DNA of 64,000 nucleotides from Pythium myriotylum (Eukaryota; Oomycota; Peronosporomycetes; Pythiales; Pythiaceae): assembly GCA_023091665.1 (NCBI GenBank), contig JALJCQ010000006.1, positions 1,178,001 through 1,242,000 on the forward strand. The letters are read 5' to 3'. Below the pieces are notes generated by a model, which worked only from the letters and a program-made list of their open reading frames with translations, searched no databases and was not told the DNA's origin. This document shows positions 10,328 through 63,936 of the stretch, in pieces (positions within the stretch are counted from its first letter, which is position 1; each line of letters starts with the position of its first letter). The position numbers and the translations under genes are program-made.

Positions 10328-11116
10328 TTAAAAGCGGCTTGGGCGGTCGCCAGGCTTCTCGAATGGCGGGCGGAGGTTATCGTCGTCGCTGAGAGCACGA
10401 GTAGGGCGGTCGCCAGGCTTCTCGAATGGCGGGCGGAGGTTATCGTCGTCGCTAAGAGCACGAGTAGGGCGGTCGCCAGGCTTCTCGAATGGCGGGCGGA
10501 GGTTATCGTCGTCGCTAAGAGCACGAGTAGGGCGGTCGCCAGGCTTCTCGAATGGCGGGCGGAGGTTATCGTCGTCGCTGAGAGCACGAGTAGGGCGGTC
10601 GCCAGGCTTCTCGAATGGCGGGCGGAGGTTATCGTCGTCGCTAAGAGCACGAGTAGGGCGGTCGCCAGGCTTCTCGAATGGCGGGCGGAGGTTATCGTCG
10701 TCGCTAAGAGCACGAGTAGGGCGGTTCGCTGAGATGCTGTTGGGTTTCATGATCTCATGTGTTCGAAGCTTTCGAGTGTAGATCGATCCGGAGTGCTTGG
10801 TCGTGATGCGTCCAATTACGTATCCGCAACCTCGGCCGTTTGCTTCGGTTCTTGTTGGATTGGATCCTCCCTTGATCCAGCAGCCATAGTTTGGCTCCCA
10901 TGCCCAGTGCGTGCAGCGCGTGTCATCGACACAAATCTGACCGCATTCCGTGGACGGGCGGTTTATCGGGTACAAATCGTTGCCAAAGAAATCGCAGTTG
11001 CTGTCCCACATGACGAGACCGCCCGACCCGGACTGCCATGCTACCACAGGGGATAGCGATGTGGTTGCGACAGCCGCAACTGAGATGACGACAATTTTCT
11101 TCGGAAAGGGATGCAT
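10328..11116 (-). CDS. Secreted PAN/Apple-domain protein with six tandem 21-aa repeats, 262 aa
   Basis: ATG 11116 opens a signal peptide (MHPFPKKIVVISVAAVATTS, cleavage expected near PVVA-WQ at about residue 27). Residues 38-101 form a PAN/Apple-like module: NCDFFGNDLYP, ECGQICVDDTRCTHWAWEP, CWIKGG and GCGYVIG, with six Cys. This resembles the carbohydrate- or protein-binding PAN modules of oomycete secreted proteins. A basic stretch containing R-K-L-R (residues 115-118) follows, then six copies of a 21-residue unit (RPTRALSDDDNLRPPFEKPG plus D), and the protein ends DRPSRF. Acts outside the cell; ligand unknown. The upstream in-frame ATG at 11227 would mask the signal peptide. Confidence 0.85.
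   Translation of the reverse strand: MHPFPKKIVVISVAAVATTSLSPVVAWQSGSGGLVMWDSNCDFFGNDLYPINRPSTECGQICVDDTRCTHWAWEPNYGCWIKGGSNPTRTEANGRGCGYVIGRITTKHSGSIYTRKLRTHEIMKPNSISANRPTRALSDDDNLRPPFEKPGDRPTRALSDDDNLRPPFEKPGDRPTRALSDDDNLRPPFEKPGDRPTRALSDDDNLRPPFEKPGDRPTRALSDDDNLRPPFEKPGDRPTRALSDDDNLRPPFEKPGDRPSRF
10341..10718. repeat. Six tandem 63-bp coding repeats
   Basis: Units begin at 10341, 10404, 10467, 10530, 10593 and 10656 and are almost identical. The only difference noticed is one base in the GCTGAG/GCTAAG stretch: units 1 and 4 have G, units 2, 3, 5 and 6 have A (synonymous in the encoded protein). The G-A-A, G-A-A order indicates that a three-unit (189-bp) block was duplicated. Because 63 is divisible by three, two frames on the minus strand and one on the plus strand stay open through the array. 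Confidence 0.95.
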
Positions 11117-11415
11117 TGAGGAAAGGCCGCGCCTTGATGACGAGCGATGTAATCTGGTGGCAACTGGAAGTCGCTTTGTTCTTGTCGCCGGAAATCGAGT
11201 TGTGAGATTGACCGAAAGCACGCTCACAGAGTCGAAGGCATGCTCACCTCCCCCTTGAGCAGGATTTTGGTCATGGCTTCGTGATGCTCTGACGCTAGAC
11301 TAGCAGTGGAGCAACCGAGTCGATACGAATCAGCAATAACTGTACATGCTGGAGCCACTGAAAAATCAAGTTAATCCAAAAACCAGCATTACTGTATTCG
11401 CCAAGCGTAACCAGC

Positions 11416-11454
11416 AAGGAAGTGGACCCACAGAATCTGTGGGTTCACTTCCTT
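11416..11454. repeat. Tight 18-bp inverted repeat, 3-nt loop
   Basis: Arms 11416-11433 and 11437-11454 pair at 17 of 18 positions, and the exception becomes a G-U pair in one transcript orientation; the loop is AAT. A weaker flanking pair (11354-11370 with 11460-11472, with a 4-nt bulge) extends the symmetry. It sits in the gap 11228-11893, which otherwise shows no gene. Could be the end of a degenerate miniature transposon or a transcript hairpin. Confidence 0.75.
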
Positions 11455-11893
11455 ACTACCTTGATTTGTGGCACAGATCAAACCGTAATTGGAGTTGGGT
11501 TCGTCGTCATCTGGGTGCTTGGCTTCACCAGAGCATATCTTCACCTGGACAAAACAGCGGACGGAATCTCACCTTCCACAAAACTTCCAGCCAACACTGG
11601 TGAACTCATGCGAGAGCGTGGTAGGCTTGTGATGTTGTCGGTTGACTGTGCTTCTGCGGTATAATGGAGAGTAAAGTTCAAAGTTTGATGACGATAAACT
11701 CGATGAACTTCGTTTTGACATCTCCCAATGGTACTGTCCTTACCAATCGAGTGACCTTGCTGATTGTGAGAGAGAAACTGGGGTCTACGAAACTTCGAGA
11801 TCAAGCAGAAGCGACAAAACGCAAACTCCATCAAAGTCGATTGTATTCGACAAACCTCTCTCTTCATTCTCTCGTTCATTCACTAGCGGACGT

Positions 11894-58956: not shown

Positions 58957-61900
58957 TTGACGCGCGACCCGATGGCCGAGCTCTGGGAGCACGAGCGCGA
59001 GGCGCTGGCGGTCGCGGCCGCGCGCAACGTGCTGCTCTGTAGCGCGCGCCGCGTCGGCAAGACCTTCCTCGCGGCGCTGCGCGTGCGCGAGTGGCTGCTC
59101 CGCGACGACGGCGCGCCGCGCAAGCCCGCGCTCGCCGTCGCGCCCTCGCCCGAGATGCGCGCCGCGCTGCAGCTCGAGATCGCGCGCGTCTGCAGCGCCG
59201 CCGCGTGGACCGAGAGCGCCGACGCGCCCGACGCCGCCGACCAGCTCGCGCCTCGGCTGCTCGACGAACGACACGCGCAGCGAGTGTGCGTCGCCGTCGT
59301 TTCGCCTCGTCTGTTCCAAGCGCTGCTGCGGAAGCGACTCGTGGGGATGGGAGACATCGGGCTCTTGGTGTTCGAAGGCGCCGACGAGATCCACGAGTCC
59401 TCGCCCGCGCTCTTCCGGCTCGCGTTCGAGCCCGTGCGCATCGTCGGCGCCACGCTCGCCGCGGCTCCCGACGTCGAACTGCCGCGCATCTTCGCAACGT
59501 CGCGCGCGCCGGCCTCGGTGCTCGCGCTTGACCCGCGGGAGAACCCGCTCGTGCGCCACATCCACGTCGTCAACCTCGTTCCCGTGATCTCGCGCGACGC
59601 CATGGCTGTACTCGAAGGCCTCGCCCAACCGGCGCTACCGCTGCTGCTTCCCGAGTCCTTCGACTCGACCGCGACTCCAAGTGCGACGCTGCCCTGTGCC
59701 GTCCGCGACTTCCTGCTTGGCGAAAACGACAAGAAGATCGATTTTGTGAGGCTCTTCCGCATGGAGATGGAAATGGGTAACTCGGCCGCCGTCTACGACG
59801 AGCGCAAGAAGCAGGAGCGAGCAAAACGCTTCATCGCGGACGCTGAGACAGTGTACCAGCACCTCGGGTTGTGGTGTCTGCTCAAGTTTGTCGAGCTCGA
59901 ACTGCAGTTCAATCTGCACGCGTGTCTCGTCGAAGACGTGGACAATATCAATCGGAGACGCCGGCGACAGCTCCTACTTCAGCGAGGTTTGGACGATACG
60001 GACCCTGACGGCGAAGGTTTGCCTGTCGGAGAAGCCTCAGACGACGATAACGAAGAGGCAGAAGAAGAGGCCAGCGAAACCAGTTCACTTACCACGCTGG
60101 TTGAGTCCGCGTCGGCCAACCTGGATGAGAACAAACTGGGTAAGATCAAGCTTATCATCAAAGTACTCAGTTCCCTAGCCGCAGCCGCCAACAAGCTTGG
60201 CGCAGATGCGGCGACGCCGCGGCTACTCAAGGTCGCAGCTATGACTCGAAATCGACTAATGGTCTCTGCGTCGTCTGAAACTGACCGGAAGCTTTCACCC
60301 TGGTCGCGGTGCTGGGTGTTTGTGGAACGCCGCGTGCACTGCACCGTCGTCGCCGAGTACTTGTCCTTTGCGCTTCATGACCTCGGCATCCCACCCTGCT
60401 GCAGTATGCTCGGCCACAGCAACGCACGTATCGTCGGCTCGCTCCACTTCTCTTCATACCTTAAAATTATTACGCTCTTCGCCAACGGCGGTACGAACGT
60501 CCTGGTGACCACGTCAATAGCCACCAAGTCGCAGCGTGCCCGTGTTGAGCCGCCGCAGTGCGACATGGTGGTTGTTATGGACGAGATCCAAGAGGCCGAC
60601 AAACTCCTCGGCTACTGCCATCGAGCCTATGCAGCTCACGGTGCTGTCAAAGTAGTCATACCAAATGATCGTCATGACGCGAAGAAATTCCAGTTGCTGG
60701 TGCACAAATTAAAAGAGCTTGTCCAGATAGAGGCATCGCCAATTGACACCAGCACAAGCGGTGCATCCGCGTACGCGCCTCCCGCGATCCCAAAACCTCA
60801 ACGTGCGTTGGCAACAACTCGAGCTAGTTTGATCAGCGACCAAACGGTCGATCCGGTTGGGGGAGGCACTTCTGATGCTGGAAATGATGGCGATACTTCA
60901 GGTTCTGTTGTATCGGCATCACTTCCAGCATCAGAAGTGCCTCCCTTAGTGAAACCTACGGCCATTAGATCGCACCAACCACGAGTCGCTTCTGCTCCAG
61001 CACCTACAGTCACGTACGAAATCGTCAACAAAGACACCGGGGCGGTGCTAAATCTCGAAAACAGCGTGAGGACTTTGAGCAAATTCTGCGAGACGATCCC
61101 AGGGCTCGACACATATGATCGCCATCCGCAATATTTCGTCAAACGCCACCCGATCTCAGGTCCGACAATGTCTGCGTCCATGAAGCAGATGATGAAGAAG
61201 AAGTTCAAGTACAACAGCAAGCTTGACGATAAGATTGATGAGCTCGCAGCTCAGGCAGAGGCACGGAAAGCGTCTCGAGAGGGTGAGAAAGATGTCGACA
61301 TGCCCGCTGTCGTGGACGAGAGTTATTCAAGCTCGGGGCGTTTTCTCTACACGGCCAAACTACGTCTGCCGGTGGCGCTGAACATGAAGAAGGAGATCGG
61401 CAGCCCCAAAGTATTGTCTGACGTCGAAGCAAAGGCAATTGTTGCGTTCAAGGCATGTCAAGAACTGATCAAGCGTGGCTTGCTCGACCGTCACTTTAAG
61501 TCACTGATCGATCACGAAGAAAACTCAGAGTCTCCTGCTGAAAGCCCTGCCGATAAGACTGTCTACGTGGACGACGAAGATATGAACTCCAGACGTTTGG
61601 CGGACCTGTCTGCCCAAAATAGCTATGACCTCCCACCCGTCAGTGCCGCTGAACTTGGGCTTCCTACCGTCCGCAGTTTGATGGTGTCGGCGAAGGCCAC
61701 CGAGTCATCGGAAGCGCTTGAGAACGATCCGTCGGGAGTGACTGTGTCGATGTGCTTTTATGGGATTGAAGGCATCCGGTTCGCGATCTTGAGCTCAAAG
61801 GAGCTCTACACTGGTAACACAAACACAGGGTGGCGGTACGATTTTGCCACGAGCGATGTCATGGAACCCACCGTGAGTCGTGTTACACTCCAGAAGAAAC

Positions 61901-63936
61901 CTACACCGCTGAAACTCACCAAGACACAGCTCGACCAAGTACTTCACTTCCATTTGATCACAATGCGGCTCGCGTGTATGAACGTGGACGATGCGACTCG
62001 AGAGGTAGATATCCAAGGTGACAAAGTATGGAACGAGTTTTCGGAGCAGAACGACAAAGGATACTTGGTCGTACCGAGCCGAATAGACGCGGACGGGGCA
62101 CTTGTGCTTGACTGGGACTATGTGAAAGAGATCGTAAGCGAGCCGCTACTGGTCGATTGCTGGCCTCTACCAGACTTACATCAGTGGCCAAGTGAAGAGT
62201 GGGTTTGCGTACCCAGGTTCAGGCGCAACGTCTACTACGTGGTGCGAGCTATCATGGACGAAAAGGCCGGCGACCGAGTGCAGCCCATGGCAGAGCTTGA
62301 ATCATCGTGGACGGCCCACTTGAAGTCGAAGGCTATGCCAGGTGTACCCGTCTTCGGCCGCTGGCACACACGAGAGCAAGTGAAGGAGGCGGACCCGAAC
62401 CAGCCACTTGTCCATGTAGTACAGGTGCCAGCCATCGTGCCACTGATCCGCCGCGTCATGCAGCGTAACAATGACGAGGCTAGCATCGCGCAGTCCAAAA
62501 CCAAATTTCAGGAGCGGTTTCTGCTTCCTGAGCTCACTCACTTACTGCGAGTACGGAAGACGCGTTTCTTCGAGGCCATGGGTATCGTTCCACTGCTGTA
62601 TGAGTTTGAGCGCAAGTGCCAGATGTCGAACCTTATGCGCCACATCGGCCTCGAGCTCGATCTTAAGCTGCTGGACGACGCGACGACCAAGCCAAACTAC
62701 GAGCGACTCGAGATCTTGGGCGACACATTTCTCAAACTCGAGACTTCGTGGTTCCTCTTCCAACACCGGCCCGATATCACCGAGGAAGGACATCTCACGC
62801 AGCTGCGGAGGGATATTATTCGCAATGACCGACTCAACATGTTCGCACTCGCGAAGAAGCTTCACCACTACATCCTCTACCCGGCTGAGGTCGAGCAGCA
62901 CCCGTTCAAGTTTTGGAAGCCCTCGTGCATGGGCCAGACCCCCGACAACATCGTCGCGCCGTCCAAGTGGATTGCGGACGTGCTTGAGGCCATGTGCGGT
63001 GCCTACCTTGTGGGCCAGAACGAGGCTGGCGCACGTCAGTTCCTGCGGTGGGTCGGGGTCACCGTGCCGGACGAGAGTCATCGCTTCCTCACGGCCTACT
63101 ACCCAGACTATTTACCTAACGAGATAGATGCTGACGAAAGACCCGCAACGCTCGCGCGACAAAGAGACTTGGGCTTCCGGGTGGAAGCCTTCGACGATAT
63201 TCCAAGCCGTCTTGAGGTCATGCAGCAGCGATTGAAGTACACGTTCTCCAACAAGTTGCTGCTGCTTGAGGCGCTCACTCACCCGTCCGTCGGCGCGCTC
63301 ATGATATCCCATGGCGATGCCAAGCCAAAACCGTGGAAGGGTAATTACGAGCGGCTTGAGTACCTGGGCGACGCCATCATCGAGTACCTCACGCTGTCAT
63401 ACGCTTTCGTGAGCTATGCCAAGTGGTTGCCTGGATCGCTATCACAGTGGAAGAGCGCAACGGTCTCGAACGACGCACTCGGCAAGACGGCCATCTCCTG
63501 TTTCGGTGTGGACGAGTGCTTGCTCGCTGGCGCACTTCGGATGGACCGTGAGTCGATCGCACTGGTCACAGCCATGGAGCGGAGGTATCCTCGCAGCGAC
63601 GCCCAGGCGCAAAGTAGGCTTCATGGCGTCGTGGCCACCAACAACAAGAAGAAGAAGCCTAATGACAAGGCCATCAATACCCTCGCACTGCCCAAGATGT
63701 TCGCGGATGTCTTCGAGGCCCTGGTCGCCGCCGTCTTCCTAGACTCAGGTCACAGCCTCCAGTCTGTGCGCGATGTCTTTCTCGGACCGCTCATTGAGGT
63801 CGTGGGTCGCGATGCGTATGCCTATGTATGTCGTGAGAGCGGACTTCCGATGGATGACGACCTCCTCGCCACTGGGGACGACTTCGACATGGAGGAGCTG
63901 CGACTCTTTTCGGAAGAGGAAGAAGAGGACGAATGA
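58957..63936 (+). CDS. DCL: Dicer-like ribonuclease III, 1659 aa
   Basis: Single-exon Dicer-like enzyme cutting double-stranded RNA into small RNAs. An N-terminal helicase-like part has CSARRVGKTFLA (motif I) at about residue 28 and DEIH (motif II) at about 143. A helicase-C-like part lies at about 445-590 and a Ser/Gly linker at about 610-690. A dimerisation/platform-PAZ-like middle follows, with the connector helix FLLPELTHLLRVRKTRFF near 1190. RNase IIIa has YERLEILGDTFLKLE near 1248 and IADVLEAMCGAY; RNase IIIb has YERLEYLGDAIIEY near 1465 and FADVFEALVAAVFLD. All acidic catalytic residues of both RNase III domains are present. There is no dsRNA-binding domain after RNase IIIb; the protein ends in an acidic tail. 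ATG 58972 is an alternative start. Confidence 0.93.
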   Translation: MTRDPMAELWEHEREALAVAAARNVLLCSARRVGKTFLAALRVREWLLRDDGAPRKPALAVAPSPEMRAALQLEIARVCSAAAWTESADAPDAADQLAPRLLDERHAQRVCVAVVSPRLFQALLRKRLVGMGDIGLLVFEGADEIHESSPALFRLAFEPVRIVGATLAAAPDVELPRIFATSRAPASVLALDPRENPLVRHIHVVNLVPVISRDAMAVLEGLAQPALPLLLPESFDSTATPSATLPCAVRDFLLGENDKKIDFVRLFRMEMEMGNSAAVYDERKKQERAKRFIADAETVYQHLGLWCLLKFVELELQFNLHACLVEDVDNINRRRRRQLLLQRGLDDTDPDGEGLPVGEASDDDNEEAEEEASETSSLTTLVESASANLDENKLGKIKLIIKVLSSLAAAANKLGADAATPRLLKVAAMTRNRLMVSASSETDRKLSPWSRCWVFVERRVHCTVVAEYLSFALHDLGIPPCCSMLGHSNARIVGSLHFSSYLKIITLFANGGTNVLVTTSIATKSQRARVEPPQCDMVVVMDEIQEADKLLGYCHRAYAAHGAVKVVIPNDRHDAKKFQLLVHKLKELVQIEASPIDTSTSGASAYAPPAIPKPQRALATTRASLISDQTVDPVGGGTSDAGNDGDTSGSVVSASLPASEVPPLVKPTAIRSHQPRVASAPAPTVTYEIVNKDTGAVLNLENSVRTLSKFCETIPGLDTYDRHPQYFVKRHPISGPTMSASMKQMMKKKFKYNSKLDDKIDELAAQAEARKASREGEKDVDMPAVVDESYSSSGRFLYTAKLRLPVALNMKKEIGSPKVLSDVEAKAIVAFKACQELIKRGLLDRHFKSLIDHEENSESPAESPADKTVYVDDEDMNSRRLADLSAQNSYDLPPVSAAELGLPTVRSLMVSAKATESSEALENDPSGVTVSMCFYGIEGIRFAILSSKELYTGNTNTGWRYDFATSDVMEPTVSRVTLQKKPTPLKLTKTQLDQVLHFHLITMRLACMNVDDATREVDIQGDKVWNEFSEQNDKGYLVVPSRIDADGALVLDWDYVKEIVSEPLLVDCWPLPDLHQWPSEEWVCVPRFRRNVYYVVRAIMDEKAGDRVQPMAELESSWTAHLKSKAMPGVPVFGRWHTREQVKEADPNQPLVHVVQVPAIVPLIRRVMQRNNDEASIAQSKTKFQERFLLPELTHLLRVRKTRFFEAMGIVPLLYEFERKCQMSNLMRHIGLELDLKLLDDATTKPNYERLEILGDTFLKLETSWFLFQHRPDITEEGHLTQLRRDIIRNDRLNMFALAKKLHHYILYPAEVEQHPFKFWKPSCMGQTPDNIVAPSKWIADVLEAMCGAYLVGQNEAGARQFLRWVGVTVPDESHRFLTAYYPDYLPNEIDADERPATLARQRDLGFRVEAFDDIPSRLEVMQQRLKYTFSNKLLLLEALTHPSVGALMISHGDAKPKPWKGNYERLEYLGDAIIEYLTLSYAFVSYAKWLPGSLSQWKSATVSNDALGKTAISCFGVDECLLAGALRMDRESIALVTAMERRYPRSDAQAQSRLHGVVATNNKKKKPNDKAINTLALPKMFADVFEALVAAVFLDSGHSLQSVRDVFLGPLIEVVGRDAYAYVCRESGLPMDDDLLATGDDFDMEELRLFSEEEEEDE
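60861..60945 (+). repeat. Near-perfect inverted repeat (pre-miRNA-like hairpin) inside the Dicer-like ORF
   Basis: The arms 60861-60896 and 60910-60945 pair at 34 of 36 positions. The outer 23 (60861-60883 with 60923-60945) pair without a break; the mismatches are at 60884/60922 and 60890/60916; the loop 60897-60909 is 13 nt. G-U and U-A pairs extend outward by about five positions, and a further short pairing (60846-60853 with 60968-60976) is possible. It encodes a Gly/Ser/Ala linker between the helicase-like and middle parts of the protein. In RNA it would be a stable hairpin of the size of a miRNA precursor. The pairing is read directly from sequence; any processing is inference. Confidence 0.93.

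What the first reader, a model, noticed from the sequence alone, without database searches (positions are those of the whole stretch)
60861..60945. Dicer-like mRNA carries its own dsRNA hairpin
A 36-position stem with only two mismatches and a 13-nt loop lies inside the coding sequence of the Dicer-like gene. By chance such symmetry is very unlikely, and the encoded linker does not require it. In RNA it is an almost ideal RNase III substrate, so the enzyme could cut its own mRNA (negative feedback) or release an approximately 21-25-nt small RNA. Precedents: plant DCL1 pre-mRNA contains a miRNA hairpin, and Drosha cleaves hairpins in DGCR8 mRNA. Here the hairpin is in an exon, so cutting would destroy the message.
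Basis: partly seen in the sequence, partly recalled or inferred. Interest (0 to 1): 0.88.

Follow-up and report, generated by a model that had tools for sequence, protein, structure and literature searches.

The report
Young coding hairpin in oomycete Dicer
The gene for an RNA-cutting enzyme (Dicer) in a water mould contains a stretch of DNA followed almost at once by its own reverse complement, which none of 43 related proteins could encode; it likely arose by a recent DNA-copying slip, and the message is predicted to fold into a hairpin that the enzyme might cut, so a self-control role is possible but untested.

Summary
The hairpin is real. Window 60861-60945 holds a 36-position inverted repeat with 34 Watson-Crick pairs, extendable to 37 of 41 around a 3-nt loop, the outer 23 perfect. 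It lies in one uninterrupted 1654-codon ORF for an oomycete DCL1. Chance does not explain it, nor does the peptide force it. The 23-nt arm occurs in the 58.7-Mb genome only here, at up to 3 mismatches. Over all synonymous codings, 0 of 43 Dicer relatives could encode 34/36 or 37/41 pairs as an ungapped stem, and this linker is the longest among the oomycetes (161 residues against at most 138). I read it as a young, lineage-restricted, in-frame inverted duplication, probably from replication template switching, in a variable linker that tolerates it. The RNAi machinery is present and inverted repeats are potent small-RNA sources in Phytophthora infestans, so dicing of this mRNA is plausible but untested. 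RNase III-type cutting of coding hairpins in an own message is known in bacteria and for DGCR8. No relative's DNA and no small-RNA reads were available; the closest relative has 63-65% protein identity, so conservation among sister species is open.

The parts
58972..63936 (+). DCL1 ORF, 1654 codons and stop, uninterrupted
   Evidence: Dicer_dimer and RNase III domains; 44 relatives
60861..60883 (+). outer 5' arm, 23 nt, perfectly complementary to 60923-60945
60884..60901 (+). inner 5' arm, 18 nt, 14 of 18 paired
60902..60904 (+). 3-nt loop of the 41-nt-arm version (13-nt loop 60897-60909 in the 36-nt-arm version)
60905..60922 (+). inner 3' arm
60923..60945 (+). outer 3' arm, 23 nt
60739..61011 (+). 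variable linker, about residues 590-680, ahead of the Dicer dimerisation domain; lowest GC3 of the gene within it
61063..61506 (+). Dicer dimerisation domain (residues 698-845)
62686..62910 (+). first RNase III domain (residues 1239-1313 matched)
63349..63750 (+). second RNase III domain (residues 1460-1593)

Best explanation
The coding sequence of this oomycete DCL1 carries an in-frame inverted repeat with 41-nt arms and 37 pairs that none of 43 relatives could encode as an ungapped stem, and it likely arose recently by a template switch (fold-back copying) during DNA replication in a linker that tolerates insertions. Shown: the repeat, its open frame, its single-copy state, its absence from those relatives, and the longest linker of the oomycete set. 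Inferred: the replication slip copied one arm as the reverse complement of the other across a very short spacer; the copy stayed in frame and free of stops; substitutions then left 4 mismatched positions, all in the loop-proximal 18 of 41. Predicted, untested: the mRNA folds into a near-perfect hairpin that the cell's RNase III enzymes could cut at some rate, and a small RNA from one outer arm would be perfectly complementary over up to 23 nt to the other arm of the same message. I hold little or no effect on DCL1 expression more likely than an evolved feedback loop.
For: Near-perfect inverted repeat with a very short spacer, single copy. No exact copy of the arm in the viral or the bacterial/archaeal collection. 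Best possible pairing over all synonymous codings in relatives: 33/36 and 36/41 against the actual 34/36 and 37/41, 0 of 43 (0 of 37 in the first version). Linker segment of 161 residues against at most 138 in oomycetes. Two more single-copy stems with 3-nt loops in 274 kb (17/18 and 18/19 paired) hint at the same process elsewhere. Template switching can create perfect hairpins in one event, mismatches arising later (PMC8794818; abstract and section 5 read), and has altered yeast coding DNA (PMC8604942; abstract read).
Against: No hairpin-free ancestral DNA is available, so source arm and switch points cannot be named. The test of which arm is older was inconclusive: 3' arm like the closest ortholog P0002 (shuffle p 0.01), 5' arm like two Globisporangium proteins (p 0.002 and 0.018); p <= 0.05 in 4 of 37 and 2 of 37 relatives. 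The mismatch-free outer 23 pairs could also reflect selection for the stem. Landing in a Dicer gene of all genes is a coincidence this reading must accept. The other two single-copy stems are far shorter, so no second event of this size was seen in the 274 kb.
Confidence: 0.6

Rival explanations
1. A functional self-control element: the hairpin in the DCL1 message is cut by DCL1 or by the second double-RNase-III enzyme, which lowers DCL1 mRNA and may release a small RNA that targets the same message.
For: Stem of 34/36 pairs stable in mRNA context. RNAi genes present: six RNase III matches, among them a second double-domain gene on C13; four Piwi matches; one RdRP. In P. infestans inverted repeats gave the most small-RNA reads per Mbp and hairpin RNAs are processed to about 21 nt (PMC3804510, passages). 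Coding-sequence self-cleavage by bacterial RNase III (PMC3386247, passages) and DGCR8 (PMC2736397, abstract). Outer 23 pairs perfect.
Against: 0 of 43 relatives can encode the stem. No match to a curated RNA family. No small-RNA or cleavage data. Translating ribosomes would open the stem (inference).
Confidence: 0.17
2. The hairpin lies in an in-frame, stop-free intron and is absent from mature mRNA, similar in position type to the miR838 hairpin of plant DCL1.
For: 19 in-frame GT..AG combinations of 45-300 nt span the hairpin; five share a donor at 60803 with a full GTRNGT match, one of them ending TAG at 60949, four bases past the hairpin. Removing 60803-60949 keeps the frame open and would shorten the 161-residue segment to 112, near the 114 of Pythium oligandrum. 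GC3 is lowest here.
Against: No CTRAY branch-like site in the last 60 nt of any of the 15 combinations listed of the 19. GC at codon positions 1/2/3 in the hairpin codons is 0.69/0.69/0.21, a coding-like period, though the two arms are complementary and not independent. Full-length frame open for 1654 codons. Of three cloned P. sojae genes the paper names DCL2 as the one with introns, of 71 and 83 bases (PMC4791657, passages).
Confidence: 0.07
3. An assembly or sequencing artefact (fold-back read or chimera).
For: Fold-back artefacts exist in long-read data (recalled); reads were not available.
Against: Arms of only 41 nt with four mismatched positions, frame kept over 1654 codons.
Confidence: 0.04
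4. A fold-back transposable element or its remnant.
For: Such elements occur in this genome: L025:7784-7847 has related copies on C12, C9, C4 and C3.
Against: No related copy of the DCL1 hairpin; by eye no target-site duplication at its ends.
Confidence: 0.03

Closest known systems
Template-switch-mutation hairpins (for example MIR633 and rRNA stems, PMC8794818)
   Same: Near-perfect inverted repeat, absent from relatives, with a few mismatches
   Different: Here in a protein-coding exon; without the ancestral DNA the event itself is not reconstructed
RNase III (rnc) self-regulation through its own coding sequence in S. aureus and Streptomyces (PMC3386247)
   Same: A dsRNA-cutting enzyme whose own coding sequence holds a structure of RNase III-substrate type
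   Different: A eukaryotic Dicer; cleavage not shown; stem absent from relatives
Drosha/DGCR8 hairpins in Dgcr8 mRNA (PMC2736397)
   Same: Hairpin in the message of an RNA-processing component, one of them in the coding region
   Different: There the message encodes the partner protein and destabilisation is reported; here neither is shown
Arabidopsis DCL1: miR838 in intron 14 and a 5'-UTR stem-loop (PMC12825306)
   Same: Stem-loop in a Dicer-like transcript with proposed feedback
   Different: Intron and UTR, not coding sequence; unrelated lineage
Coding palindromes in mitochondrial genes of Nematomorpha (PMC6649704)
   Same: Inverted repeat inside a protein-coding gene, both arms in frame
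   Different: There numerous, perfect, up to 284 bp and in conserved protein regions; here one, imperfect, in a variable linker of a gene on a 1.4-Mb contig

Membership tests
Template-switch-mutation hairpin | near-perfect reverse-complement copy beside its source with short spacer | tested here: met
   37/41 pairs, 3-nt loop, outer 23 perfect
Template-switch-mutation hairpin | derived state: relatives lack the inverted copy | tested here: met
   0 of 43 relatives can encode it as an ungapped stem; protein level only
Template-switch-mutation hairpin | source arm and switch points inferable from hairpin-free ancestral DNA | tested here: inconclusive
   peptide similarity of the arms points both ways; no orthologous DNA
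Exonic RNase III self-regulatory hairpin | stable double-stranded stem in the enzyme's own coding sequence | tested here: met
   (prediction of folding)
Exonic RNase III self-regulatory hairpin | cleavage by the enzyme with effect on the mRNA | not testable with these tools
   no reads or assays
Exonic RNase III self-regulatory hairpin | pairing kept in relatives (evidence of selection) | tested here: not met
   closest relative 63-65% identical, so conservation among sister species is not excluded
miRNA or miRNA-like precursor | small RNA precisely processed from the stem | not testable with these tools
   no small-RNA reads
miRNA or miRNA-like precursor | match to a curated RNA family | tested here: not met
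   0 Rfam gathering-score matches in the window; a new family would not match either
Fold-back transposable element / MITE | related copies elsewhere in the genome | tested here: not met
   only its own locus
Coding palindrome of the Nematomorpha type | both arms encode conserved protein sequence | tested here: not met
   arms lie in the variable linker

The most novel reading that the evidence does not exclude
A lineage-specific off-switch built into a Dicer exon: one replication slip gave an oomycete's DCL1 message a 36-bp hairpin that its own RNase III enzymes dice, so that each cut destroys a Dicer message and may release a 21-25-nt RNA perfectly complementary to the other arm, a self-limiting loop gained in a single mutation.
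Probability: 0.17. Interest if true: 0.82.

Novelty: new member of a known kind. Interest (0 to 1): 0.42.

Why it matters
If it is only a tolerated template-switch product, it is a clear case of a long hairpin born inside a coding exon in one step, a route by which hairpin small-RNA sources could begin. If the enzyme does cut its own message, it would be a coding-exon feedback element of a eukaryotic Dicer gained by one mutation. One small-RNA library and DNA of one sister species would separate the two.

Tried and rejected
Rejected: transposon or MITE origin (only its own locus). Viral or prokaryotic source of the arm (0 exact hits of the 23-mer; exact matches only). A second genomic match for arm-derived small RNAs (none at up to 3 mismatches, backward control 0). 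Hairpins as a habit of RNAi genes: ten fetched stretches with Piwi or RNase III matches scored at most 13 against 30 here; L011 and the RdRP locus L034 were not scanned. A known RNA family.

Led nowhere: a protein search with the linker region alone (1293 candidates, none at E <= 0.001); telling the older arm. Of eight paper searches, searches listed papers that I then opened; searches added none; (Pythium, Dicer, hairpin, inverted repeat, coding sequence) listed one paper, PMC4791657, of which I saw passages. I make no claim that this hairpin is unpublished beyond that search.

Full report
What is there. The window lies in a 58.7-Mb, 55-contig genome. Its DCL1 gene is one open frame, 58972-63936, 1654 codons, with a Dicer dimerisation domain and RNase III domains. 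A protein search gave 44 relatives; best is a JGI protein of unnamed organism (63% identity), then Dicers of Pythium oligandrum, Globisporangium and Phytophthora. I therefore call the organism a Pythium-like oomycete (inference).

The hairpin. The outer 23 pairs are perfect. The mismatched positions are 60884/60922, 60890/60916, 60897/60909 and 60898/60908; third codon positions face third positions and first face second. Folding gives z -12.0 for 125 nt and z -4.9 for 501 nt with the stem kept.

Chance. Synonymous redraws reached at most 32 of 36 pairs in 20,000 trials. In 274 kb (the window and 21 stretches of 10 kb, most from one contig) 13 stems scored 12 or more against 3 in one Markov copy, whose best was 13. 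The only equal score, L025:7784-7847 (30/30), belongs to a repeat with related copies. Two weaker single-copy stems with 3-nt loops, window 11416-11454 and L026:1971-2011, lie where the listed frames are short: at most 100 aa at the former, two of 62 and 66 aa at the latter.

Conservation. For each relative I took the peptide aligned to residues 565-725 and computed the most Watson-Crick pairs any synonymous coding could give in an ungapped stem. One search aligned 38 of the 44 relatives; one search examined 37 of them with arms of 36 at twelve loop sizes and arms of 41 with loop 3; one search added the six left out and all loops 3-30, 43 of 44 in all (P0041 has only 21 residues in the segment). 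The window protein allows 35/36 and 39/41; the relatives at most 33/36 and 36/41; 0 of 43 reach the observed 34/36 or 37/41. The bound is strict for ungapped stems; a bulged stem could escape it. One of the 43 (P0045) is a distant protein of Quaeritorhiza, P0038 aligns poorly here and P0042 lacks most of the linker. The segment has 161 residues here and at most 138 in the oomycete relatives (225 in P0045). Shuffled peptides reach 32-36 of 41 (40 shuffles of each of two linkers), so the relatives look like chance and the window does not. No relative closer than 63-65% protein identity and none at DNA level was available, so conservation among sister species is untested.

Origin. Single copy, a very short spacer, arms in frame and absence in relatives fit a template switch during replication, described as able to create perfect stems in one event with mismatches arising later (PMC8794818, abstract and section 5 read) and reported to have changed 39 coding genes in yeast (PMC8604942, abstract). 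Which arm is the source stays open. Codons 641-680 have the lowest GC3 of the gene's 40-codon blocks (0.25 against 0.69 overall), which fits weakly constrained sequence (inference) but would also fit an intron.

Could it act? The genome holds six RNase III matches (two here, two in one 693-aa frame on C13, one each on C7 and C9), four Piwi matches on C18, C13 and C3, and one RdRP. In P. [quoted passage not shown]). The oomycete DCL2 class is called more similar to Drosha in one paper (PMC10080066, abstract and sections 12 and 16 read) and more Dicer-like in another (PMC4791657, passages). A hairpin of this kind is thus a plausible substrate (inference). The outer arm matches only this locus at up to 3 mismatches over 23 nt. 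No reads were available.

Intron rival. Nineteen in-frame GT..AG combinations span the hairpin; the best-looking, 60803-60949, would bring the linker to 112 residues, near the 114 of Pythium oligandrum. None of the 15 listed has a CTRAY site near its end; the three-base period of GC (0.69/0.69/0.21) and the P. sojae gene structures speak for an exon. RNA-seq would settle it.

Comparison with the known. RNase III of S. aureus and Streptomyces regulates itself through its own coding sequence (PMC3386247, passages); the Microprocessor cuts 5'-UTR and coding hairpins of Dgcr8, and that study found this exonic read pattern unique to Dgcr8 (PMC2736397, abstract), which speaks against exonic hairpins being cut in general; Arabidopsis DCL1 has the intronic miR838 hairpin and a 5'-UTR stem-loop bound by DCL1 from which no small RNAs were mapped (PMC12825306, passages). 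Long coding palindromes are known in Nematomorpha mitochondria (PMC6649704, abstract). The present case resembles the first two in layout but has no shown cleavage and no conservation, so I do not file it with them.

Verdict. Real, striking and, by the relatives available, young; most likely a tolerated template-switch product, with self-control a live but unproven reading.

Noticed in passing
window 11413-11457: Second short-loop inverted repeat (22-nt arms, 91% complementary, 1-nt spacer), single copy in the genome, in a stretch with only short ORFs.
   Followed up: partly
L025:7784-7847: Perfect 30-bp stem with a 4-nt loop; related copies on C12, C9, C4 and C3, two of them matching on both strands: a repeat family with fold-back structure.
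   Followed up: partly
window 58972-60738: The N-terminal part of DCL1 has a GKT stretch like a Walker A motif (recalled) but no Pfam helicase match, suggesting a degenerate helicase.
   Followed up: no
window 10328-11299, minus strand: ORF with about six tandem copies of a peptide repeat (RPTRALSDDDNLRPPFEKPGD).
   Followed up: no
proteins P0003 and P0038 (Pythium oligandrum): Two Dicer-like proteins with close gene numbers (004684, 004687) on contigs of the same length, suggesting a neighbouring pair; PMC10080066 lists one DCL and one DCL2-class gene for this species.
   Followed up: no
G000:C3:2378999-2379616 and C3:2395791-2396066: Two partial Piwi matches about 16 kb apart covering different parts of the domain: possibly interrupted or partial Argonaute genes.
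   Followed up: no
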